In this document: positions 1,012 through 36,559 of the stretch, piece after piece | Layout of the letters: each line of letters opens with the position of its first letter | Position numbering within the stretch: position 1 is the stretch's first letter | Assembly (NCBI GenBank): GCA_025455065.1 | Contig: JALONG010000046.1 | Location: forward strand, 1 to 36,733 | Origin: Candidatus Kapaibacterium sp. | Lineage (GTDB): Bacteria; Bacteroidota; Ignavibacteria; Kapaibacteriales; UBA4661 | DNA length: 36,733 nt | Direction: 5' to 3' | Program-made: the position numbers and the translations under genes | Notes under the pieces: model-generated | Told to the model about the DNA's origin: nothing | What the model saw: only the letters and a program-made list of their open reading frames with translations | Databases searched by the model: none

Positions 1012-2868
1012 TTACCGCCGAACCACAACCATCGCACGCTGTATCATACCGTTTGCATACTCCACGCGGCACGAATACACGCCTGACGGCAATTCACTCA
1101 AGGAAATTTGATGCTGAAGTTCTTCATGTTGAACAACATGAAGCGTGGCAACCGCTACATTTTGCCCCAAAGCGTTGTCAAGGCTTACTTTCGCTTCTCC
1201 GAGCGCAAGCGGCACAATACGCAGCACCGCTCTGTCCTGAGACGGATTCGGAAACACGCTTAATCCTGTTTCGGTACGCAACGGCGCTTGGACGCTGGTT
1301 ATGCGGTCAAGAAAAAACCGGGCTGTTACGGGAAAATGGTCTGTTGTACTGGTTGAATATCCCGTAATGTAGGTAAATGGCGACTCAATTTTCTCGCCGC
1401 CCGCAAGAATACTTGCATTCATCTCATTACTAACGACAACATTATCAATCATCCCACCCGCATTGATAGACGAAAGCCCTTGACGAGCCAAACTCGCCGT
1501 TACAAACGTGTACCGCGCAGAATCACGCACAAACGGCAAATACGGCGTTGGCAAACTCTGAAAAATTGATGCCGTTGGGCTGTCGTTAAAGTCTCCCGCC
1601 ACAATCACGTTTTGCGTAGGATAATTCGTGTTCAAAAAGTCGTACAACAACTGTGCGTCAGTTGTGCGAAGGTCGTAATCACGTTGCGTTGAGCCTGCTT
1701 TTGCGTGAATGTTGAACGCATGAATACGGCGACGAACACCTTGCACAGCAGCATCAAACTCCAAGCGAAGCGGAAAGCGCCCTGCGGCAAATTGTGAGTT
1801 GGTTAGAACCATTTCAGACCGCACCGTATCAATCACCGAGCGCTTAAAGAGATACGCCGTGCGCTGCGGAACAAATTGCGGTTGCGGCGGCGCAAATCCG
1901 GCAATAATCGCTCCGTAACGCGGCAATGAATCCAAAATACGCAAAAATAAGGGCGAATTGGAAATCTCCTGAAGCGCGTACAAATCCGCATCAATGCTGT
2001 CCAAAACACGAATAACATTGCGAAATTGCAGCAAAGAATCCGCTGGACCAAGCCGCGTAACGCCGTCATTATCAAACGGGCGACCAAACCAGCGTAAATT
2101 CCATGTTGTAACATCCAACGTCCGCGCTTTAGGGATAGTGTCTGCGGGATTAACTGACAACGAAATGCCTAAATCCGCCGCTGTGCGTGGTAATATCTGG
2201 TACGTGCCGCGAAACTGTCCCAATGCACCAACCACTGATACATTTCCACGCGGAATACGTTGATTGATGGGGTTCGTACCGGCGGTGATACGTACCTGTG
2301 CCGTTGTTGAGCCATCGAACACCTCATAATTGGTCGCACTGCGAAATGTGGCTGTATCGCGGAACTGAACTCCCGATACACGAACCAACTGCCCTTCTAG
2401 CGCTTCACCGCTTGCTCCAACAAGCTCCGACAAACGAACTTCCCTTGCAACAGGTATCACTCGCGCAACAGGTATAATGCGAAAAGTCACGCGCGAAGCG
2501 CCACTGCCTGATATTTGACCAAGCCCGGAACCCAGAACACCCGTTGTAGCTTGAAATTCCGTGTAAGGACCACTCACTTCCACGGAATCTCCAAGAGCAA
2601 CAGCACGGCTTAATGGCGTATCAAACACCGCCAAACCACCCGTACCGTCCTGTATATGGGCTTGTCCGCCAAATTCTGCGGCAACCGTAACACGTCCCGC
2701 AACATACAACACCGTTCCAAGCGGCTGCCGACGCGCTTCTTGGATCGTGCGAAATGTGGCGGTGGTAAAAGGTGCGGTTTGTGCAAAAAGCGCATTGGGC
2801 AATAACGCCGCTAAAATCAGGCTTGACAGAAGAATACCTTTGCAAGAACGAAGAATCAACTGTTTCAT
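1012..2868 (-). CDS. Secreted endonuclease/exonuclease/phosphatase-family protein with T9SS sorting domain
   Basis: The 618-residue product has an N-terminal signal peptide (about 1-29, ending ALFAQ). Two OB-fold-like segments follow at about 47-115 and 145-235. An endonuclease/exonuclease/phosphatase domain spans about 250-520, and a T9SS type A sorting domain about 536-618 (begins LSVFPNPSQD). Family catalytic motifs are visible: N257 in TTWNLRWF, E301 in LQEIS, H388 in FNIHAK, D426/N428 in GDFND and D510-H511 in TDHFP. A metal-dependent phosphodiesterase acting on extracellular DNA or RNA is the likely role, with export by Sec and then T9SS to the cell surface or medium. Specificity (nuclease or phosphatase) cannot be decided. 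It is the last gene of its strand and is followed by a terminator. Confidence 0.88.
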   Translation of the reverse strand: MKQLILRSCKGILLSSLILAALLPNALFAQTAPFTTATFRTIQEARRQPLGTVLYVAGRVTVAAEFGGQAHIQDGTGGLAVFDTPLSRAVALGDSVEVSGPYTEFQATTGVLGSGLGQISGSGASRVTFRIIPVARVIPVAREVRLSELVGASGEALEGQLVRVSGVQFRDTATFRSATNYEVFDGSTTAQVRITAGTNPINQRIPRGNVSVVGALGQFRGTYQILPRTAADLGISLSVNPADTIPKARTLDVTTWNLRWFGRPFDNDGVTRLGPADSLLQFRNVIRVLDSIDADLYALQEISNSPLFLRILDSLPRYGAIIAGFAPPQPQFVPQRTAYLFKRSVIDTVRSEMVLTNSQFAAGRFPLRLEFDAAVQGVRRRIHAFNIHAKAGSTQRDYDLRTTDAQLLYDFLNTNYPTQNVIVAGDFNDSPTASIFQSLPTPYLPFVRDSARYTFVTASLARQGLSSINAGGMIDNVVVSNEMNASILAGGEKIESPFTYITGYSTSTTDHFPVTARFFLDRITSVQAPLRTETGLSVFPNPSQDRAVLRIVPLALGEAKVSLDNALGQNVAVATLHVVQHEELQHQISLSELPSGVYSCRVEYANGMIQRAMVVVRR

Positions 2869-2926
2869 AAAAAAGTGATAAGTGTGTTAAACGTGAAAAA
2901 TTTATCGTCAATTATAAAGTCCGCTT

Positions 2927-3262
2927 TCAGTCAAAAGGCTCTTCATCATTTTCCGCTATCCAGCCAATATTTGCCATTCCAACAAAAAATGCGCATAATG
3001 CAACATCGGCAACAGAAATTGTCCATCCTTTGAGCATGACAACAAGCAGAGTACAAGTACCCCCAATCATCAATAAAGCGCTGGAAGTCGCAATGAGCCT
3101 TTGCCCCCAAAGTTGTGTAACAATAGAATGATGAACGCGGGTTTTCATCACTAAAATCGCTCCTAAGTACAGAAGCGCAAGAATCGAATACAGCATAAAT
3201 AGTGGCGTTTGGAAAATACGGCAAGAAAAGAGGAAATGCACCGTGAATATACCAATACTCAC
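2927..3262 (-). CDS. Small integral membrane protein, unknown function
   Basis: A short hydrophobic protein with three likely membrane segments: around LYSILALLYLGAILVM, SSALLMIGGTCTLLVVML and VADVALCAFFVGMANIGW. It ends in an acidic tail (ENDEEPFD). I place the start at a GTG at 3262 because it overlaps the stop of the upstream vWA-OmpA gene in a GTGA arrangement, with a GGAAAG stretch just upstream; that gives 111 residues. An ATG at 3301 (124 residues, 43-base overlap) and an ATG at 3196 (89 residues) are alternatives. The overlap suggests translational coupling with the vWA-OmpA protein. I recognise no family. Confidence 0.55.
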   Translation of the reverse strand: MSIGIFTVHFLFSCRIFQTPLFMLYSILALLYLGAILVMKTRVHHSIVTQLWGQRLIATSSALLMIGGTCTLLVVMLKGWTISVADVALCAFFVGMANIGWIAENDEEPFD

Positions 3263-6200
3263 TCCGCTTTCCAAATTTTCATTACTTCCACGCGGCGGCA
3301 TCGGGCTTTGTAGGTAAATGCTGATTCTTTCGGATTACGCGGCAAAAGCTGCGAATTTCCTTGCGAAGTCGCCGTTACAAGGCTTTCAGGCAGACCACGC
3401 TTCAAGAGTTCCTGCCGGACAAACTCCGCTCTTTGCCACCCTTCCGCCTGATTTGCATCGGGTGAAGCCGTTTCGTCCGTATGTCCGATAATCACAACTT
3501 TAGCAAGCAATCTCTTCTCACGTTTCAATTCCGCCGCAAGCCGCTCTACGACTTCTTCCCAAGGGCGTTTTGAAAGCACTCCCGCCGAATCAATGACCAT
3601 CGGCAAGACGGCTTTCGTATCGGCGAAACTCAGCATCAATGCTTTGATTTCGGGCATTCGTACCTCGCGTCTCGGCAATTCGAGAACAGTCTCCTGCACA
3701 GGCATTTGCGAAATTGCCTGCCGAAGCTCTTCTGCACTCGGCTTCGACTGTACATTACGCGCTTCGGTTAGCACAGTTTCGAGCGATTGTTTAGCGGAAC
3801 GCATCTCATCCTCATCGGTGCGCAAGCGCCTCGAAAGCGTTGTTATTGCCCTCGCAACCGCCAATGTATCAGACTTACGAAAAAATGCTCTCCAGCGCGA
3901 CGGCGTATATCCCGACCACGAAGAAGGCTCAATCACGATTTCAGCACTCACACCCTTTGGCAGACGAAACGTATAAATGCCGTCGGCATTAGTTTCAGTA
4001 ACTTTTACAACATCGTTATTTGCCTGATTTCGTACCGTTACCCGCATCCCGCTCAACGCTGATGCACTCTCACGGGAAATGGATTCGGAAGAAACAGTTT
4101 CAGGAGAAACGCCTTGTTCTTCGCCAAAAAGCACCGTCCCTTCTACCAAAACATATTGCTGCACTGGGCGCAATGTGAACGTTTGCTCAAGTGTATCACC
4201 AGCCTTAAAACTCCTTGCATCTAGTTCGTACTCCAACGGCTCAAAAAGGGTCGAGCGCACGGGAACTGCTTTCACACGATACTTTCGACCGGGAACGATG
4301 ACAAGTTTGTAATTCCCCGTCATCTCGCCTGATTTCAGGCGCTTTGTTGCCGTGACGGGAAATTCAAACCCTAAATTATCCTCAAGGTATATGTCTGCCT
4401 GAAGCGGCGCACCACGCTCATCTCGAACATTCCCTCGTAAAATTGTCGGCGGAAGCAGCATCACATCTTGCTTCAGCGTGTCTCCTTTCAGCAAACGGCT
4501 TGCATCCAGCGTTCTCACAACAATACCAACACTGTCCGAATGAAGCGGCTGCACAAAGAGGCGATATTTCTTCCCTTCAGGAATGGCTTGGCGAAACGTT
4601 CCGTCTGCTGCCGTGCGAAATGGTCCAATGATATTTGCTTCGGCATCGGTTAGTGTTATGAACGCTATCTGTGGCTGCCCGTCGCCGGAACGCACTGTGC
4701 CGGAAAAATAGGAACTGGTCATATTGACAGGCGCGGTCATAACAGCATACAGCGCCGTTTTTTCCCTGCCGATACTCCTCACAATATCCGTAAACGGCTC
4801 ATTGAGGCTGTATTCCCGCCCCAACGTCAAATACGCAGAGGCTTCACCATTATTTGCACAGGGCTTAATCACTTTATGCAGCGAAATCCCTTTCGCCCAA
4901 AGGTCTCGTAACGTCAGCAATTCACGCAGCATGGGTTTTCGATTACTATACATAATTTCATCTGTCAGCACAATCCCAATCCGCTCTGCGTCAGTACGAA
5001 ACTTCATCCCGACAAGTTCATCCAGTGCAGCAGGTGTATATTCGTTATTTTGCGAGGCAGTAGCGCGAGCGAGAAATTCTTCAACGCGGTCTAAATGTTC
5101 CGTCGGCTGCAAAACATCCAAGACTTCAACACCATACGAAACAGCACCAACACGAGCATTTGCACCACTTTTCCGCAATTCATTCAAAAAATACCCAATC
5201 TGCTCACGAACTTCAGCAATCGTATTGCGCATACTGCCCGAACAGTCTAAAAGCAAGACTATATCAACGGGAACGGTCGTTACACTGTCCAAACGCCGCA
5301 CCGAAACAATACGGCGCGAGGTGTCTCGTGTGCGAAAATCAAGTGAAGATAAGCCCGTAAGCGTTCTTCCGGCACTATCAACAACACGAACAATTTTTGC
5401 TTCAAGAGGAAACAAGGTCTTATCAATCCGCTTCAACTCAATGCCGTATCCCTTTGTACTTTCAACACCAACACCCGAACTTGCATTGTCACTACCCTTA
5501 GTCGAGCCGATTGCCGCAGCCGCCACAGAACGCCCATAAAACTGCTTACGCACATTCGCATAAAGCGCAGCAGAGTCGCTTGCTAAACCATTTTCAGCAA
5601 GCATTTCAGCTAAATAGGGATTAAGTTTGGGTAACGCGGCTAAAAAGACCGCCGCGTCATCAAAGGCAGCCACAGGTCGCCCAATGCACAGCGCAGATTC
5701 CGCATCCGCGCGAAGCGAGCGAATCTCGCTTGCACTGTTAATTTTATCAGATGAAAAACGCAATACGACGCTATGCTCTAATTGCTGCGCTTCTTGCAGA
5801 CGTAGCCCGTACAGAGCATCAAAAATCTCACTGTTTACCTCTAATCCCAATCGCACTGCGGGCTGCGGAAGCCATTGCACCGAACCGGAAAGCACCACCG
5901 CCGCATTCAGCAGATTCCAACTCACCCCCGTTTCAAAACCCGGCAGCGTAGGATTGAGCAGCGACGCAGAACGAGCCGACGCAAGCAGCGTCAAATCACC
6001 TCCGGGCAGCGAATACAACGCATTTCCTAAAAACTGCACCAAACCGGGCGCTACTCTGCGATAATTGTTGTCCGTAGCAGCGCTGTACATATCCATTGCC
6101 ATAGTCGTTGCTCCGAGAGAAAACAGTAAGCCCGGCACAAGAGGTTTGAACAGAAAAGACCCGTTGTAGTCCAAATATGGCGCAGGAGCAGCTAAACTTA

Positions 6201-28549: not shown

Positions 28550-29509
28550 ATGAAATTTTCTCACGAAGAACTCCTTGACCTTACCACACCGCACGGCGGG
28601 CGCTTTGCAGCAACAACACGCGAAGAAAGTCATCGCTTTTGTCGCCGTTTGGCGTTGGGGCATTACGAAAACTTCCCCGTTGGTTCGCTCTTGATTCCAC
28701 GCCGATTGCAGCAGCATTTTTACAGCATTTATGCCTTTTCACGGCTTGCCGACGACATTGCCGACGAACTTGCGCAGGAAAACACCGTAGAAAAATTTAC
28801 TGCTCTGAAACGGCTCGAAACATTACTCATGCAGCCCGAAATTGTGTGCGGGAACCCGATTTTTACGGCGCTTCACGAAACTATCAGCACCAAAGCTATT
28901 CCAACACTTCCTTTTCAAAAACTGCTCACCGCATTTCGGATGGACAGTGATTTCCGCCAAGCAAGGAATTATGAGGATTTAGAGCATTATTGCGCTCATT
29001 CGGCAAATCCTGTCGGGGAATTGGTCTTGCGGCTGTTTGACCTGTACACGCCAGAGCGAGAGCCTTTGTCCAATGCGGTCTGCACAGGATTACAGCTTGC
29101 GAATTTTTGGCAGGATTTTTCGCGTGATTTACCCGTCGGGCGAGTATTTATACCGCAGGAAGTCTTGTCCGAGTGTGGTTTGGCTGCATCGGAACTTTTG
29201 GCTATCTACCCCAATGGGCGCTTGGAGGCTGACACAAAGGCGTTAAAAGTAGTTAAAGACCGATTTTTTCAGTGCTTTACACTTCTTTTTCATCAAACAA
29301 AATCGTATTTTGCAGACGGCAGAGCGCTACTTCCGACTATCCCTCATAAACGGCTTCGTGCGGAACTTGCTTTGACCATTGCAGGCGGAGAGCGCATTTT
29401 GGAGCAATCTTTTCACCTTCGGCATGACATCCTAATTCGGCGTGTGCAGCTCTCAAAACGTGATACTCCGGCGCTCCTTGCGCAGTCCGCTCGGTACTTT
29501 TTCGGATAA
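28550..29509 (+). CDS. hpnC: Squalene synthase HpnC (squalene/phytoene synthase family)
   Basis: The 319-residue protein has the trans-isoprenyl diphosphate synthase motifs: YAFSRLADDIADE (first Asp-rich motif) and LANFWQDFSRDLPVGRVFIP (second). The segment ENFPVGSLLIPRRLQQHFYSIYAF is typical of HpnC. In bacteria HpnC converts presqualene diphosphate, made by HpnD, to hydroxysqualene, and HpnE then reduces it to squalene for hopanoids or sterol-like lipids. The next gene is hpnD, 65 bases downstream on the same strand. HpnE is not in the window, so the final step would have to be encoded elsewhere. Phytoene synthases are close relatives, but the tandem hpnC-hpnD arrangement favours squalene. 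Confidence 0.88.
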   Translation: MKFSHEELLDLTTPHGGRFAATTREESHRFCRRLALGHYENFPVGSLLIPRRLQQHFYSIYAFSRLADDIADELAQENTVEKFTALKRLETLLMQPEIVCGNPIFTALHETISTKAIPTLPFQKLLTAFRMDSDFRQARNYEDLEHYCAHSANPVGELVLRLFDLYTPEREPLSNAVCTGLQLANFWQDFSRDLPVGRVFIPQEVLSECGLAASELLAIYPNGRLEADTKALKVVKDRFFQCFTLLFHQTKSYFADGRALLPTIPHKRLRAELALTIAGGERILEQSFHLRHDILIRRVQLSKRDTPALLAQSARYFFG

Positions 29510-29574: not shown

Positions 29575-30510
29575 ATGGCTACACTGCTCGTCAATTCTGA
29601 CTCCTCGCTGGAAGATATGCTCCCGCTTCCCCGCCAGAACACGACCAATTTTTTCTACTCGTTTTCGCTTCTGCCAAAAGAAGAACGCGAAGCGATTCAT
29701 ACGGTCTATGCGTTTTGCCGCTATACCGATGACATCGTAGATATGGATGCTCCACTTGGTACACCGATAAGCACAGTTCAAGGCATATCGGGAACTACGC
29801 TTGCTGATGCCGCTTCCACACAGCGCAAACGAGAACGGCTTGAGCGCTGGCGACGCGAGGTAGAACGCTGCTACAACGGCACTTCGACGCATCCGATTAT
29901 GAAGCCGCTTACCTCGGTGGTGAACCGCTTTTCCATTCCCCAGCAATACCTTCAAATCCTGATTGACGGCTGTGAGCGCGACCTTGTGCAGAATCGCTAC
30001 AAAACCTTTGACGAGTTAAAAGAATACTGTTACAGCGTCGCAAGTATTGTCGGCTTAATTTCGATTGAAATTTTTGGCTACAAACACGATGAAACCAAAG
30101 AGTACGCGGTAAATTTAGGCTACGCGCTGCAACTGACCAATATCTTGCGTGATATAAATGCCGACAAAGACAAAGGACGCATTTACTTGCCGCAAGAGGA
30201 TTTGGAGCGCTTTCATTACAGCGAAGAAGAGTTGTTGCGGAACGTTTACAACGAAAATTTTGTTGAGTTGATGAGATTTCAAGCACGCCGTTCCCGTGAA
30301 TACTACCACAAAGCCCGTGCTGCCTTGCGCCCTGATGAAAGTATCACGATGTTCGCCGCGCAAATCATGGATGCAATTTACTACCGTTTGTTGGAAAAAA
30401 TCGAAATCGCTGATTACAACGTCTTTCGCGGTAAAATATCCGTCTCAACATCGCATAAAATCTTGATTGCGCTCAGATTGTGGATGAAATCGCACTTATT
30501 GATGAAATGA
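29575..30510 (+). CDS. hpnD: Presqualene diphosphate synthase HpnD
   Basis: The 311-residue protein carries FFYSFSLLPKEEREAIHTVYAFCRYTDDIVD, containing the first Asp-rich motif, and LTNILRDINADKDKGRIYLPQEDL, the second Asp-rich motif. These patterns match HpnD. HpnD condenses two farnesyl diphosphates to presqualene diphosphate. Co-directional hpnC immediately upstream supports the assignment. The segment at about residues 60-85 (GTPISTVQGISGTTLADAAS) between the first motif and the next helix looks like a loop insertion. The gene's TGA at 30508-30510 overlaps the ATG of the next coiled-coil gene. Confidence 0.88.
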   Translation: MATLLVNSDSSLEDMLPLPRQNTTNFFYSFSLLPKEEREAIHTVYAFCRYTDDIVDMDAPLGTPISTVQGISGTTLADAASTQRKRERLERWRREVERCYNGTSTHPIMKPLTSVVNRFSIPQQYLQILIDGCERDLVQNRYKTFDELKEYCYSVASIVGLISIEIFGYKHDETKEYAVNLGYALQLTNILRDINADKDKGRIYLPQEDLERFHYSEEELLRNVYNENFVELMRFQARRSREYYHKARAALRPDESITMFAAQIMDAIYYRLLEKIEIADYNVFRGKISVSTSHKILIALRLWMKSHLLMK

Positions 30511-32726: not shown

Positions 32727-33611
32727 ATGCTGTTTTGGCAACTGCTTCCGACTTCGCACCGAGTTCTGCTCTTTTTGGGCGTGGTGTATTTTGTCAATGT
32801 TGCAATGCGCGGCGCGCTCACACAATGGCTCGCGCTCATGCCGTTTTCATCGGTGGGAGGCGGTCAGTATTGGCGTTTTCTCACCTATCCCCTTGCATCC
32901 AGCAGCTTTTGGGAGATGCTTTCTTCCAGTGCAATTTTATTCTTTTTTGCACCGGAAGTAGAGCGCATCTTGTCTCCGCGCCGAATGTTGCTCATTATTG
33001 GCGTTTTTGTTGCTGTTCATGGGCTTGTTTACGCGCCTGTTCTCTGGATTGCCAATGCTCCACTCGCCGGAACAACAGCAATCGCCTTGTTTGTACTGAC
33101 GATGTATGTGTATCTTTACCCGACTGGCGAAGTTTCGCTTTTTGGCTTGATTCCGCTTCGGGCAACGATGGTTCTGGGAATTGTCTTTATTGCTGCTGTT
33201 GCGGGCAGTGTATTGAGTCATTCATTCAATCCGACTGCGCTTATCAACGCCTTTGCTGATGCGGGATTTGGGATATTTTTTGGGTTTATTTTCTCCCATC
33301 TGTATTTCGGACGCTTTTCCGGCGGAGAGCCATTTTCTTCGCGCCGCGATTCCTCCTCCGGCTACCAAGCATCCACACGCAGGGCTTCAGCCCCTTCTCC
33401 TGCTTCGGTTGGGCGTTCTTCTTCCTACATGAGTGATGCAGAGCGCCGTCTGGCTGGCATAGAACGCCGTACAGACGATGATTACGATGAATCCACACCA
33501 CTTGACGAAGAACATTTGAACGAAATTTTAGATAAAATCAACGAAAAAGGTCAGGCTTCGCTTACTCCTCAAGAGCGAAAATTTCTGCAGGATTATGCGA
33601 ACAAATTATGA
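32727..33611 (+). CDS. Rhomboid-like membrane protein, probably inactive, with DUF6576-like C-terminus
   Basis: The ATG at 32727, with AGGA just upstream, gives 294 residues; a TTG at 32706 is less likely. Six or so membrane segments (about 15-190) have the rhomboid layout (WRFLTYPLASSSFWEMLSSSAILFFFAPEVE, then helices from RRMLLIIGVFVAV). The catalytic GxSG Ser is replaced (PLAGTTAIAL), and the His of the sixth helix is absent (AGFGIFFGFIFSHLYF). A Ser-rich linker leads to a C-terminal helical hairpin (DEEHLNEILDKINEKGQASLTPQERKFLQDYA), as in many Bacteroidota rhomboid-family proteins. It is likely a pseudoprotease that binds membrane proteins. Confidence 0.75.
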   Translation: MLFWQLLPTSHRVLLFLGVVYFVNVAMRGALTQWLALMPFSSVGGGQYWRFLTYPLASSSFWEMLSSSAILFFFAPEVERILSPRRMLLIIGVFVAVHGLVYAPVLWIANAPLAGTTAIALFVLTMYVYLYPTGEVSLFGLIPLRATMVLGIVFIAAVAGSVLSHSFNPTALINAFADAGFGIFFGFIFSHLYFGRFSGGEPFSSRRDSSSGYQASTRRASAPSPASVGRSSSYMSDAERRLAGIERRTDDDYDESTPLDEEHLNEILDKINEKGQASLTPQERKFLQDYANKL

Positions 33612-33682
33612 TTTCCTAATCGTAAACACCTGTATTCTGAAAACTTTATAGACACTCAATCTTTAATAATTGTCATTCCTGC

Positions 33683-33716
33683 AAGAGCCTTGTTCATATA
33701 CAAGGTTCTTTTTTTT
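33683..33716 (+). terminator. Rho-independent terminator after the rhomboid-like gene
   Basis: Arms AAGAGCCTTGT and TACAAGGTTCTT (about 33683-33710, one G-T pair) enclose a TTCA loop. They are followed on the plus strand by eight T (33709-33716). It lies 72 bases after the stop at 33611, between this gene and the convergent arsM. Confidence 0.85.
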
Positions 33717-33813
33717 GTACCTGCATATACCACCCCAAACTGCATTGTTATGCGCTTGAGGCGGTAAGTGCAAGGGATAATGTGATGAGTCGCGTTGCTC
33801 AAACGAACATTCG

Positions 33814-34635
33814 TTATGGTTTGAAACCGACGACCGTAATGCTCAATAGCCGAGTGTTAGAGGCTCGAAACACCGCAATTTCCGCCTCCGTGATGAATGC
33901 TCGCAAAAGTTCGTCGGGGAGAAAGATTTCGCGCTCTTTGGGTACACCGACATTGATAAAGCCTTGTTCTTCAATGATTGATTGATAGTCGTGTTTCTGA
34001 ATTGCGCCTGAAACGCATCCCGCATACATTTCCGCAGCCCTCTGAATCCCGCTTGGTAATGCGCCTTCCAACACAATATCGGAAATCGTGAAATGCGCAC
34101 CCCGCTTCAAAACACGGAAAATCTCGCCAAAGGCAGCACGTTTATTGGGTACAAGGTTCAAAACACAGTTACTTACAACGACATCAGCAATTTCGCTTTC
34201 AAGCGGCATGGCTTCAATATCTCCTTGCACAAATTCAACATTTGCGAAGCCCAGTTTGGCGTTGTTCTGCCGTGCTTTGTGAATCATCGCTTCCGTGAAA
34301 TCCACGCCAATCACGCGCCCTGTGTTGCCGACGATTGCCCGCACAATAAAGGCATCATTACCAGCACCGGAGCCTAAATCCACGACGGTATCGCCCGCTT
34401 TGATATTGGCAAATTGCGTCGGAATGCCGCAGCCAAGCGACAAGTCGGCATCCTGAACATAGCCCTGCAAAGCAGAATAATCCTCGTTCATAATGCTATC
34501 GGTGCTGATGGAGACAGGTCCGCAGCCGCAGGAAGGTCCGCAGCCGCTTCCAGATTGAGCGGCGATTGCGCCGTACTTTTCTTGAACAATCGTTTTGAGT
34601 TCAAGCGTAGAATCAAGTGTTTGTGATGTGTTCAT
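33814..34635 (-). CDS. arsM: Arsenite methyltransferase ArsM
   Basis: The 273-residue protein has the SAM motif VDLGSGAGND (85-94). The three cysteines conserved in ArsM sit at C69 (SLGCGIP), C157 (SNCVLNL) and C207 (AGCVSGA). An unusual Cys-rich N-terminal stretch (GSGCGPSCGCGP, residues 29-40) may add metal-binding capacity. ArsM methylates As(III), with S-adenosylmethionine as methyl donor, to mono- and dimethyl forms and on to volatile trimethylarsine. It is the last gene of the arsR-peptide-arsN2-arsM array on the minus strand, 50 bases after arsN2. The cysteine set and the neighbours make this a secure call. Confidence 0.95.
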   Translation of the reverse strand: MNTSQTLDSTLELKTIVQEKYGAIAAQSGSGCGPSCGCGPVSISTDSIMNEDYSALQGYVQDADLSLGCGIPTQFANIKAGDTVVDLGSGAGNDAFIVRAIVGNTGRVIGVDFTEAMIHKARQNNAKLGFANVEFVQGDIEAMPLESEIADVVVSNCVLNLVPNKRAAFGEIFRVLKRGAHFTISDIVLEGALPSGIQRAAEMYAGCVSGAIQKHDYQSIIEEQGFINVGVPKEREIFLPDELLRAFITEAEIAVFRASNTRLLSITVVGFKP

Positions 34636-34685
34636 GGTATTGTGCCAAAAGGGTGGAATAGAAATTTATTATTGAAGGTTGATTG

Positions 34686-35162
34686 TTATGCACACTCAAA
34701 GGTGTGCGGGAGCCGTTCCGATGGTACACGGAGTGTTTTTCGCATGATAACAGCCGAAGCAGGACACAATCCGCTAAATTCCTGCGTTTGACGTAATTCA
34801 TCGGGTGCATCTTCGCGCTGAAGTCGCTCAAAACCTAAGCGTGTGAGCCAATCCGCAATCGTCGTTGTAAGCGCATACACTTCCCGCAAGCCCATTGAAC
34901 AAGCGTGGTTTTCGGCGGCGGCAAAGAGCTTTGCAGCAATGCCTTGACCACGTACATCCCCACGAACTGCGATTGAGCGCATCAAACCTACAAACTTCCC
35001 AATTTGTTCCACTCCCGCTACGCCGAGAATTTCTTCTCCCTCGCGCATAACAACAAAGTGGTGTAAATGCTGCGTTGTAAGGTCATTTGTGGGCAATGTT
35101 GCTTCGTTGAGAAGCCTGTGAATAGATGCTTCATCATGCTCTTGTGCAAATCCGAGTACCAT
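34686..35162 (-). CDS. arsN2: ArsN2-type GNAT acetyltransferase
   Basis: The 158-residue GNAT protein has the acetyl-CoA loop VRGDVRGQGIAAKLF (about 65-82; the R/Q-x-x-G-x-A pattern is visible as RGQGIA) and the ArsN2 hallmarks LLNEATLPTNDL, LTTTIADWLTRLGFERLQREDAPDELRQTQEFSGLCPASA. ArsN proteins acetylate arsinothricin or related organoarsenicals and are usually encoded in ars operons. AAAGGAAAC precedes the ATG. It lies between the Cys-rich micropeptide and arsM on the same strand, so it is very likely co-transcribed with both. Confidence 0.92.
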   Translation of the reverse strand: MVLGFAQEHDEASIHRLLNEATLPTNDLTTQHLHHFVVMREGEEILGVAGVEQIGKFVGLMRSIAVRGDVRGQGIAAKLFAAAENHACSMGLREVYALTTTIADWLTRLGFERLQREDAPDELRQTQEFSGLCPASAVIMRKTLRVPSERLPHTFECA

Positions 35163-35214
35163 AGCTGTTTCCTTTGATAATGTTGAACAAGGTTATTCAA
35201 TTTCTGTGAAAAAT

Positions 35215-35270
35215 TTCCCGCCAACCATCGCATCATGCCTTACCTCGCAAATTGCCTTGCTTGGCGGGAA
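35215..35270. repeat. Perfect 10-bp inverted repeat between the Cys-rich peptide and arsN2
   Basis: TTCCCGCCAA (35215-35224) and TTGGCGGGAA (35261-35270) pair exactly around a 36-base interior. On the minus strand the stem is followed by a short ATTTTTC stretch. It may be a weak terminator or an mRNA structure that sets the ratio of the short peptide to arsN2-arsM, since it begins 16 bases after the peptide stop. Confidence 0.5.
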
Positions 35271-35285
35271 TACGTGTTTGTTCGA

Positions 35286-35372
35286 TTAGCAGCAACCCGT
35301 ACTGCCACAGCAAGAATTCGATTCCTCACCGCAGCAAGCATCGTTGCAGAGATTCACAATGTTGGCATTCAT
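35286..35372 (-). CDS. Cys-rich micropeptide (28 aa) in the ars cluster
   Basis: A short frame from an ATG at 35372 to TAA at 35286-35288 encodes 28 residues with seven cysteines: C9, C13, C14, C21, C22, C27 and C28. Three are CC pairs and the peptide ends GSTGCC. Between the cysteines are polar residues (ND, GEESNS, GST). It lies between arsR (stop at 35581) and arsN2 (start at 35162) on the same strand. Composition and position suggest a thiol peptide that binds As(III), similar in spirit to metallothioneins. No Shine-Dalgarno is evident and no homologue was checked, so the frame could be chance, but such a cysteine density by chance is unlikely. It is too short for automatic callers. Confidence 0.6.
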   Translation of the reverse strand: MNANIVNLCNDACCGEESNSCCGSTGCC

Positions 35373-35580
35373 GATTGTTCTCAAAAAAGGTTAAAAATGA
35401 GTTTCCATGCGCCTTCTAAGGGACAAAGTGCTAGCTGCTCTGCACCCTTTTCAAGCGCGAGTGGTATTGTTGGTGTTTGGTTGTTGAATTTGCTTTCGAG
35501 GCTCTTCAAACATCGCATTGCGATACTTGTGGCATTTCTTTCCCCTGATCCCCTTGCCCTCATCCTTCTGTCCTTCCAAA
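35373..35580. other. Gap between arsR and the Cys-rich peptide
   Basis: This 208-base stretch has no supported gene. The minus-strand frame from 35662 across it shows no family features and starts inside arsR in another frame. On the minus strand the sequence is purine-rich (AAGGACAGAAGGATGAGGG). It may be leader or spacer RNA for the peptide-arsN2-arsM part of the transcript. Confidence 0.5.
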
Positions 35581-35904
35581 TTACCCGCAGCATTTTGCTG
35601 CCGCCGTAAACAAGCCGGAAAGAAGCTTTTGCGCTCGTTGCAAGCCTTCGGGGTTGATACAATAACAGACCGACGGTCCGTCAATCGTGCCTTGAATCAA
35701 GCCTACCTCCTTGAGTTCTTTGAGATGCTGCGACACTGTTGCTTGCGCGAGAGGCAATTCCTCCACAATATCCCCGCAAACGCAGGATTTACGCTGTGCC
35801 AAGACCTTCAAAATCGCTACCCGCGCCGGATGCGAGAGTGCTTTAGCGTAAGAAGCACACATAATCTCGTCTTCTTGAAATAAATCTGCTTTCGTTTGTG
35901 CCAT
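35581..35904 (-). CDS. arsR: ArsR/SmtB family repressor
   Basis: The 107-residue protein shows the ArsR winged helix (YAKALSHPARVAILKVLAQRKSCVCGDIVEELPLAQATVSQHLKELKEVGLI). The As(III)-binding cysteine pair C41/C43 lies in CVCGD at helix alpha-3. Other cysteines are C16, C80, C82 and the C-terminal CC (105-106). ArsR dimers repress ars genes and release DNA on binding arsenite. The three downstream genes (Cys-rich peptide, arsN2, arsM) point to arsenic. A candidate operator lies 55 bases upstream. The ATG at 35904 fits the family. Confidence 0.93.
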   Translation of the reverse strand: MAQTKADLFQEDEIMCASYAKALSHPARVAILKVLAQRKSCVCGDIVEELPLAQATVSQHLKELKEVGLIQGTIDGPSVCYCINPEGLQRAQKLLSGLFTAAAKCCG

Positions 35905-35958
35905 TAGTGGGTTTTGGTTTGTCGTTTTTGGTTTTTTTTTGCTGCTTGCTTATCGTCT

Positions 35959-35974
35959 ATCGTAGATTTACGAT
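35959..35974. promoter_or_regulatory. Candidate ArsR operator
   Basis: ATCGTAGATTTACGAT is an inverted repeat with 6-bp arms and a 4-base centre in the divergent arsR/DUF1801 gap. It lies 54 bases before the arsR ATG. A further half-site-like word ATCGTCTATCG overlaps at 35952-35962. The shape fits ArsR-family sites. Confidence 0.6.
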
Positions 35975-36139
35975 TAAACTACAAAAAGTTTCATATCCTC
36001 GCAATTTTTTTTCTCAAAAACTGCATCAAAACCTGATAAATACTTATTGTCAGCGCTTGGTTGAAGTATTTGTGTTTGGTCAGCAATTCCCGTATATTTC
36101 GCATACAACGATTTCGTATATCAACAAGGAGAACAATAT

Positions 36140-36559
36140 ATGGCTACAAACAAGACTGCACCGACTTCGGAAAGCGTTACAGCATTTTTGAGCACCGTTG
36201 CTGACGAGACACGAAAACAAGATTGTTTCGCACTGCTTGATTTAATGAGCTCTGTAAGCGGCGAAGAAGCCGTCATGTGGGGTGCAAGCATTGTTGGCTT
36301 CGGGAAGTATCGGTACAAGTATGCAAGCGGACGCGAAGGCGAACACTGCCCTATCGGTTTTTCTCCACGCAAAAACGATTTGGTGATTTACATGATTTCC
36401 GGCTACGAAGATTCTACGGAAGAATTGGCTCAACTTGGTAAGCACAAACTTGGGAAATCATGCCTCTATATCAAGCGTTTGAGCGATATTGACGTGAATG
36501 TTTTGGAGAAAATGCTACGGGAATCACTCAAGCGCACGAAAGAACGGTATCCGGGATAA
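36140..36559 (+). CDS. DUF1801 domain-containing protein
   Basis: The 139-residue protein is a full-length DUF1801 (YdhG-like) member, with SVTAFLSTVADETRKQDCFALLDLM near the N-terminus, WGASIVGFGKYRYKY and CPIGFSPRKNDLVIYM in the middle, and GKSCLYIKRLSDIDVNVLEKML at the C-terminus. The family adopts an iron-chaperone-like fold and its biochemical role is not established. AAGGAG lies a few bases before the ATG, a good ribosome-binding site. It is divergent from arsR and could share the operator region, but it is not a known arsenic gene. A terminator follows at 36579. Confidence 0.9.
   Translation: MATNKTAPTSESVTAFLSTVADETRKQDCFALLDLMSSVSGEEAVMWGASIVGFGKYRYKYASGREGEHCPIGFSPRKNDLVIYMISGYEDSTEELAQLGKHKLGKSCLYIKRLSDIDVNVLEKMLRESLKRTKERYPG

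What the first reader, a model, noticed from the sequence alone, without database searches (positions are those of the whole stretch)
35286..35372. Unannotated 28-residue peptide with seven cysteines inside the ars cluster
Seen: ATG to TAA, 28 codons, Cys at 9, 13, 14, 21, 22, 27 and 28, co-directional with arsR, arsN2 and arsM. As(III) is bound by three thiols, and CC pairs plus a GSTGCC tail fit a thiol ligand or chaperone. Below the usual 30-residue cut-off, it would be missed by standard callers. It might deliver arsenite to ArsM or buffer it, but both are inference.
Basis: partly seen in the sequence, partly recalled or inferred. Interest (0 to 1): 0.68.

Follow-up and report, generated by a model that had tools for sequence, protein, structure and literature searches.

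The report
Tiny cysteine-pair peptide of arsenic operons
A 28-residue gene that standard annotation would probably miss turns out to belong to a conserved family of very small cysteine-pair peptides inside bacterial arsenic-resistance operons, most likely a ribosome-made arsenic-binding thiol, although the chemistry is untested.

Summary
In detail: window 35372..35286, minus strand, encodes MNANIVNLCNDACCGEESNSCCGSTGCC* between arsR and arsN2-arsM. It is not chance. A homologue lies at the same place in a genome of the same genus. Position scans, a profile search of whole genomes and a DNA pattern scan gave 32 members (29 distinct genes, 28 distinct peptides of 16-34 aa) in Bacteroidota and, twice, in Chloroflexota, each in a locus with ars genes. 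All 28 end in CC; 24 keep at least three CC pairs. The window's Cys9 is not conserved.

27 of 29 are followed by a strong hairpin, against 9 of 73 other ars-gene ends. In one lineage the peptide gene is last in its operon, which argues against a cysteine-codon leader peptide; in 21 of 29, however, an ars gene follows.

The same CC-x(about 5)-CC element ends ArsM, DUF6428 and zinc-ribbon proteins in ars loci, and ArsD, where a paper ties those pairs to regulation.

Most likely it is a free-standing As(III)-binding dithiol peptide (buffer or hand-off ligand). Conservation and ars linkage are shown; translation, arsenic binding and delivery to ArsM are inferred. No family model matched it, and the papers searched showed no description.

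The parts
35286..35372 (-). micro-ORF, 28 codons + TAA: MNANIVNLCNDACCGEESNSCCGSTGCC (shared with the family: MN at the start and the pairs C13C14, C21C22, C27C28; C9 not conserved)
35373..35404 (-). leader just before the ATG (..AACTCATTTTTAACCTTTTTTGAGAACAATC-ATG); similar in G005 (..AACTCACTTTTTACTCTTATTGGAGAACAACC-ATG) and in G091 (..TTTTCTAACCATAAAATGAAACAATC-ATG)
   Evidence: compared by eye
35215..35270 (-). terminator-like hairpin starting 15 nt after the stop codon: 10-bp outer stem TTCCCGCCAA/TTGGCGGGAA followed by ATTTTT (35214-35209)
   Evidence: -30.4 kcal/mol for the 94-nt stretch, z = -4.1, 0 of 200 shuffles as good; not listed by the pattern scan, which allows loops of 3-8 nt only
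35581..35904 (-). arsR, ArsR/SmtB-family repressor, C-terminus ..AKCCG
34686..35162 (-). arsN2, GNAT acetyltransferase
   Evidence: NF040501, 136.2 bits against a cut-off of 125
33814..34635 (-). arsM, arsenite methyltransferase; N-terminal GSGCGPSCGCGP motif, no C-terminal CC tail
   Evidence: NF008823, 321.4 bits against a cut-off of 263

Best explanation
It is a real micro-gene of the ars operon, presumably controlled by ArsR with the rest (inferred). Its product is a short, probably unstructured peptide whose conserved working parts are vicinal cysteine pairs, typically CC-x5-CC followed by a last CC at the very C-terminus. The pairs bind trivalent arsenic as thiolate, like the CC-x5-CC end of ArsD and the CC tails of ArsM. 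The peptide would be a diffusible As(III) buffer that hands arsenic on to ArsM or to the efflux permease. The terminator-like hairpin after its stop codon would let it be made in excess over the genes behind it, as suits a stoichiometric binder. Shown: the gene, its conservation, its ars linkage, the conserved CC pairs, the hairpin. Inferred: translation, arsenic binding, hand-off, excess expression.
For: Same-position homologue in G005 and in G091. Profile search of 294 whole genomes of one family: 38 with a hit at E <= 0.05; 28 of the 30 fetched loci hold an ars gene; 10 genomes beyond the training set carry a copy (9 intact, one degenerate), all beside ars genes. Reversed-spelling control: 1 of 181 genomes, inside a 588-aa frame with no ars gene near. 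Pattern scan of one genome for each of 84,980 species: 50 stretches, 19 with a family-type micro-ORF, all 19 in loci with ars genes (18 by ArsR and/or ArsM, one by ArsP_1). All 28 distinct peptides end in CC; 24 have at least 3 CC pairs. Closest Bacteroidota pair: 2 synonymous and 0 amino-acid changes in 84 nt. The two Chloroflexota copies have GGAGG 8 nt before the ATG. A CC-x(2-7)-CC end on 50 distinct ArsM, 9 DUF6428 and 2 zinc-ribbon-like proteins in the fetched loci and on ArsD (SCCGGKTSCC); PMC4562236 (passages) names the E. coli ArsD pairs Cys112-113 and Cys119-120 and cites the proposal that they serve its regulatory function. Hairpin: 27 of 29 against 9 of 73.
Against: No translation, binding or phenotype data. 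The family is patchy: 4 of 335 genomes sampled across the phylum and, by my count, 18 of 294 (one degenerate) in the best-populated family. Some members have only two CC pairs (16-aa forms, G433, G146), and the G499 copy has an internal stop that removes the last pair. PMC4562236 links the ArsD C-terminal pairs to regulation, not to its chaperone role, so 'buffer or hand-off' is not given by that likeness. Search design favours the pattern: the position scan asked for cysteines at the end, the pattern scan asked for ATGAA and DPGCC, and the codon-position counts use pairs picked by protein likeness.
Confidence: 0.6

Rival explanations
1. Cysteine-codon leader peptide: ribosomes stalling at the TGY pairs steer the hairpin that follows and so tune the genes behind it; the peptide itself does nothing.
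For: A strong hairpin follows the stop in 27 of 29 members, and in 21 of 29 an ars gene follows on the same strand within 400 nt, as in the window. Cysteine-rich regulatory sORFs acting as cysteine-responsive attenuators are known in mycobacteria (Canestrari et al. 2020, seen only as cited in PMC9094748). An intergenic hairpin that lowers downstream expression is reported in a Bacillus ars operon (PMC4562236, passages).
Against: Of 8 loci looked at for this, the next ORF of at least 80 aa is on the opposite strand in 6: L214, L244, L248, L251, L255 (one lineage by their shared neighbour genes, so not independent) and L228; in L229 and L238 the next same-strand ORF is 179 and 723 nt away. Residues other than Cys are conserved (MN/MK start; DPG in 13 of the 18 distinct peptides found without the DPG pattern). 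The same CC element sits at the ends of enzymes. No alternative pairing was tested.
Confidence: 0.15
2. Small metal-binding or redox peptide for something other than arsenic (Sb, Cu, Zn, or general thiol exchange) that happens to live in ars operons.
For: CC pairs bind several soft metals (general knowledge).
Against: Every member counted lies in a locus with ars genes, many beside arsM, arsN2, ACR3 or arsC, genes for arsenic chemistry.
Confidence: 0.13
3. Regulatory co-sensor or adaptor that binds ArsR, ArsM or the pump and changes its activity, using CC pairs as an arsenic-dependent switch as proposed for the C-terminal pairs of ArsD.
For: PMC4562236 (passages) cites the ArsD C-terminal pairs as regulatory. 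In 4 of 29 distinct members, the window included, arsR is the gene just upstream within 400 nt.
Against: Little conserved sequence for protein contacts beyond a short N-terminus; arsR is not the neighbour in most members.
Confidence: 0.1
4. Chance ORF or non-coding DNA.
For: 28 codons is short, and most sampled relatives of the window lack it.
Confidence: 0.02

Closest known systems
C-terminal tail of ArsD (PF06953), e.g. the Citrobacter freundii plasmid copy ending SCCGGKTSCC
   Same: CC-x5-CC at the extreme C-terminus, ars operon; a paper cites these pairs as important for the regulatory role of E. coli ArsD (PMC4562236 passages)
   Different: Here free-standing, 16-34 aa, usually with a third CC pair; none of the ArsD body; no ArsD match in Pfam. 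ArsD itself does not always have the tail
C-terminal CC tails of ArsM and DUF6428 in Bacteroidota ars loci
   Same: CC-x5-CC end, same operons; the L232 micro-ORF has CCEPGSLCC, its ArsM ends CCEPGSGCC
   Different: Tails are part of a longer protein. Codon-level likeness of tail and micro-ORF is no higher within a locus than between loci (0.67 against 0.66, 16 loci), so no sign of recent local duplication. The window's ArsM has no such tail
Bacterial metallothioneins (SmtA/BmtA; features recalled)
   Same: Small, cysteine-rich, would bind soft metals
   Different: No Pfam or NCBIfam metallothionein match; CC pairs; tied to ars genes
Polycysteine leader sORFs of mycobacteria (Canestrari et al. 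2020, seen as cited in PMC9094748)
   Same: Short ORF rich in consecutive Cys codons in an operon
   Different: Position varies within the operon and it is last in at least one lineage; conserved residues beyond Cys; same element on enzymes

Membership tests
ArsD (PF06953) | match to the ArsD profile | tested here: not met
   no ArsD match for 7 family members at E <= 10
ArsD (PF06953) | C-terminal vicinal cysteine pairs CC-x5-CC (E. coli type) | tested here: inconclusive
   19 of the 27 distinct peptides that hold two plain CC pairs space the first such pairs by exactly 5, the rest by 3-8, the window by 6; in most the x5 pairs are followed by a further CC; ArsD tail
ArsD (PF06953) | binds As(III) and passes it to ArsA, or represses ars | not testable with these tools
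   needs biochemistry
Metallothionein | match to a curated metallothionein model | tested here: not met
   NCBIfam 0 hits for 6 peptides at E <= 10; Pfam only a meaningless NOL9_C hit, E 0.34, for 1 of 7
Metallothionein | binds metal(loid) through clustered cysteine thiolates | not testable with these tools
   needs titration
Cysteine-responsive leader peptide | lies upstream of genes it controls | tested here: inconclusive
   an ars gene follows within 400 nt in 21 of 29; opposite-strand next ORF in 6 of 8 loci looked at for this, five of them one lineage
Cysteine-responsive leader peptide | terminator-like hairpin after the Cys codons | tested here: met
   27 of 29 have a hairpin of -12 kcal/mol or better; 20 of 29 also start within 12 nt and have at least 4 T in the next 10 nt; the window's
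Cysteine-responsive leader peptide | mutually exclusive antiterminator pairing | not tested
   -
Known RNA element | Rfam match in the ars region | tested here: not met
   0 matches at E <= 1 in window 33500-36300

The most novel reading that the evidence does not exclude
A portable arsenic-thiol module: CC-x(about 5)-CC units occur either fused to the ends of ArsM, DUF6428, zinc-ribbon and ArsD proteins or as free micro-peptides down to 16 residues. In hosts that make bacillithiol and show little sign of glutathione synthetase, the free peptide acts as a gene-encoded, chelating substitute for glutathione that carries As(III) to ArsM and the pump, and so would be one of the smallest metallochaperones (size comparison recalled).
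Probability: 0.3. Interest if true: 0.85.

Novelty: new variant of a known kind. Interest (0 to 1): 0.72.

Why it matters
Arsenic operons are among the best-studied resistance loci, yet I found no name for this conserved part in the family libraries or papers searched, probably because of its size. If it binds As(III), it suggests how cells without glutathione present arsenite to ArsM and to pumps, gives a 16-34-residue arsenic ligand for sensors or clean-up, and shows that the CC tails scattered over ars proteins are one reusable part. It makes the question of the thiol partner of ArsM in such bacteria directly testable with a synthetic peptide. It is also a case of a micro-gene recovered by position plus profile where a plain protein search failed (one search missed the same-genus copy).

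Tried and rejected
Plain protein search of 61 genomes (the window's own and 60 relatives) with the 28-mer gave, besides the window itself, only weak hits; the four that I checked (L002, L003, L012, L013) overlap longer open frames, and it missed the G005 copy. tblastn of the peptide on plasmids: no match. Four Bacteroidota plasmid ars loci (two Adhaeribacter, one Hymenobacter, one Pontibacter): by their annotation arsR and the next gene (arsN2 or DUF6428) leave no room for the peptide between them; I ran no micro-ORF scan on them. Members in the window's own order beyond G005: none at E <= 0.02. Other phylum hits are CC tails of ArsM (G161), DUF6428 (G250, G084, G264), a zinc-ribbon protein before arsD (G130), and three with no ars gene found (G105, G270, G258). 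The profile is not fully sensitive: it missed two of its own training members in the genomes searched (G146, G540). Origin by recent duplication of the local arsM tail: not supported. Rfam: nothing. Solved structures: only granulin fragments, E 0.049-0.99, taken as cysteine-pattern likeness. Glutathione-substitute idea: BshC in 13 of 13 member genomes tested (of 19 with a G handle); the glutathione synthetase profile PF02955 over its cut-off in 1 of the 13, and that one is the window's own genome (24.9 against 23 bits, partial); no other glutathione gene was searched. Papers: 10 searches showed no description of such a peptide; only listings and abstract starts were seen, except passages of PMC4562236 and PMC9094748.

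L214, L248 and L255 repeat the DNA of G668 or G496 and are counted among 32 members but not among the 29 distinct genes. For L246 and L228 I took an inner ATG, in line with the family, as the start.

Full report
Observation. The ORF exists as described, on the minus strand: 35372..35286, MNANIVNLCNDACCGEESNSCCGSTGCC, TAA. It lies 208 nt after the stop codon of arsR (35904-35581) and 123 nt before the ATG of arsN2 (35162-34686), with arsM (34635-33814) behind. In 300 dinucleotide shuffles of the window an ATG ORF of 16-32 aa with seven or more Cys appeared in 5, and one of the form CC..CC..CC-stop in none.

Homologues found by position. In G005, a same-genus genome with a 68% identical ArsN2, the gap between arsR and arsN2 holds MNTNEIICCGGASASTTDCCEGNTSCCGGTTGCC. 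Scanning arsN2 loci across the phylum gave G091, MNTDIQLQNDPGCCTTDEGCCTITDWGCC, 30 nt after the arsR stop and 24 nt before the first possible arsN2 start, and G146. Scanning arsN2 loci of the family of G091 (the named records suggest Chitinophagaceae) added G540, G452, G629, G576, G625 and G568. In 100 loci fetched by ArsN2 match or position (387,093 bases; a few overlap), ATG ORFs of 16-40 aa ending CC..CC..CC number 10, against 0 expected from 10 shuffles of each. The 10 include the window and two views of the G091 copy.

Searches not tied to position. A profile of nine members was run on 294 whole genomes of that family: 38 had a hit at E <= 0.05. It missed two of its own training members there (G146, G540), so it is not fully sensitive. 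Of the 30 fetched loci, 28 contain an ars gene by tblastn (not L189, L198). Hits outside the training set that read as family members (G570, G699, G702, G670, G496, G668, G531, G433, G623, and a degenerate copy in G499) all lie beside ars genes. Many weaker hits are CC tails of ArsM or DUF6428. A profile of 16 members spelled backwards hit 1 of 181 genomes of the family, inside a 588-aa frame with no ars gene near; it is a fair but not exact twin of the nine-member search. A phylum-wide sample of 335 genomes, searched with 16 members, gave 12 with a hit at E <= 0.02: four family members (G000, G005, G091, G146), five CC tails on longer ars-locus proteins, three without ars genes. A DNA pattern (ATGAA..DPGCC..CC) scanned over one genome for each of 84,980 species returned 50 stretches; 19 hold a family-type micro-ORF, and all 19 loci hold ars genes (18 by ArsR and/or ArsM, one by an ArsP_1 permease just upstream). 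In L228 (Cyclobacteriaceae) the micro-ORF is on the strand opposite to arsM, about 1.3 kb away. Three other loci of the scan hold short CC..CC ORFs unlike the family (L213, L220, L234). Named members include the cultured Lacibacter luteus and L. cauensis (16-aa forms) and two Chloroflexota (L229, L238).

The family. 32 members, 29 distinct genes, 28 distinct peptides. All 28 end in CC; 24 have three or more CC pairs and 4 have two. All begin MN or MK and 23 contain DPG, but the pattern scan asked for both; among the 18 distinct peptides found by position or profile, all begin MN or MK and 13 contain DPG (my count). The first gap between plain CC pairs is 5 in 19 of 27, and 3, 4, 6, 7 or 8 in the others. 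The window's Cys9 is not shared. Coding signs: G629 and G576 differ by two synonymous changes and no amino-acid change in 84 nt; L229 and L238 differ by one third-position change and one codon's length; over 103 pairs with at least 70% amino-acid identity, differences by codon position are 271, 310 and 1007, a set chosen by protein likeness and so leaning towards coding. In the Chloroflexota copies GGAGG stands 8 nt before the ATG. The leader before the ATG is alike between the window, G005 and G091 (by eye).

Neighbourhood. Within 400 nt on the same strand the gene upstream is arsM in 20 of 29, arsR in 4, and none of my reference genes in 5; downstream it is arsN2 in 7, arsC in 7, ACR3 in 5, arsM in 2, none in 8. 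So the micro-ORF moves within ars operons, which argues for a product tied to arsenic rather than to one fixed neighbour.

Hairpin. 27 of 29 have a hairpin of -12 kcal/mol or better just after the stop codon (not G670, G531), against 9 of 73 other ars-gene ends in the same loci (Mann-Whitney p = 2.6e-13); 20 of 29 against 1 of 73 also start within 12 nt and have a T-rich tail. The stems differ in sequence between genera. The window's own hairpin (35270-35215, z -4.1, then ATTTTT) is longer than the scan allowed, so the window is not among those 20. Where ars genes follow, this could be a partial terminator, as reported for a Bacillus ars operon (PMC4562236, passages). Of eight loci looked at for what comes next, the next ORF of at least 80 aa is on the opposite strand in six (L214, L244, L248, L251, L255, which share neighbour genes and count as one lineage, and L228); in L229 and L238 the next same-strand ORF is 179 and 723 nt away. 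In those lineages a leader-peptide role makes little sense; in the window and in 20 further distinct members it is not excluded by position.

The CC element elsewhere. In the fetched loci, a set partly brought in by the CC profile itself, 66 distinct frames of at least 75 codons end in CC-x(2-7)-CC: 50 ArsM, 9 DUF6428, 7 other. Of the 7 others, two are small zinc-ribbon-like proteins in ars loci (L200, Zn_ribbon_8, between arsM and arsD; L017, by eye), one is ArsD, two are micro-ORFs read in a longer frame and two look like chance. ArsD from a Citrobacter plasmid ends SCCGGKTSCC; the Priestia ArsD lacks such an end. PMC4562236 (passages) says that E. coli ArsD has C-terminal pairs Cys112-113 and Cys119-120, that these were predicted to serve regulation, and that N-terminal cysteines serve the chaperone role. 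Tail and micro-ORF DNA are no more alike within a locus than between loci (0.67 against 0.66, 16 loci), so recent local duplication is not supported.

Hosts. 13 of 13 member genomes tested carry bacillithiol synthase BshC; the glutathione synthetase profile passes its cut-off in 1 of 13, the window's own genome, and only just. That leaves room for a gene-encoded chelating thiol, which is inference.

Mechanism, with marks. Shown: gene, conservation, ars linkage, CC pairs, hairpin. From established chemistry: As(III) prefers two or three thiolates, and vicinal pairs are good ligands. Inferred: ArsR-controlled expression, translation, As(III) binding, buffering and hand-off, excess over downstream products.

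Novelty. No match in NCBIfam (6 peptides, E <= 10), none meaningful in Pfam (7 peptides), none in Rfam, none in the paper searches listed under Tried and rejected. The searched library lacks most subscription papers, so 'undescribed' means not found there. I class it as a new variant of a known kind (a CC-pair arsenic ligand), because the ArsD tail is the same idea in fused form.

Noticed in passing
L120 (G237), about 2194-3687, minus strand: An open frame of about 500 codons looks like ArsM fused to ArsN2 and ends ACCTPNSGCC: a methyltransferase-acetyltransferase fusion with a CC tail.
   Followed up: partly
L183, L185, L190, L192, L193, L201 (DUF6428 genes): DUF6428 proteins next to arsR end in CCTPxSGCC, suggesting an arsenic role for this unnamed domain.
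   Followed up: partly
L200 (G130) 1318-1551 and L017/L122 (G377): Small zinc-ribbon-like proteins (Zn_ribbon_8 in L200) with a C-terminal CC tail, one between arsM and arsD, one before arsC-arsN2.
   Followed up: partly
L016 (G005) 2032-2610: A 192-aa apparently membrane protein ending SCCLPA sits between arsN2 and arsM in the sister genome, with no Pfam match at E <= 0.001; the window lacks it.
   Followed up: partly
L176 (G499), about 1500-1590, minus strand: A degenerate copy of the micro-ORF: TTG start and an in-frame TGA before the last CC pair.
   Followed up: no
L079 (G091) 1701-2375: An aquaporin-like gene sits in the arsR-micro-arsN2-aqp-arsC cluster.
   Followed up: no
window 36140-36559, plus strand: A DUF1801 protein gene is divergent from arsR.
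   Followed up: no
window 28550-29509 and 29575-30510, plus strand: Two neighbouring ORFs read by eye like squalene/phytoene synthase relatives (possible hopanoid genes); no search was run.
   Followed up: no
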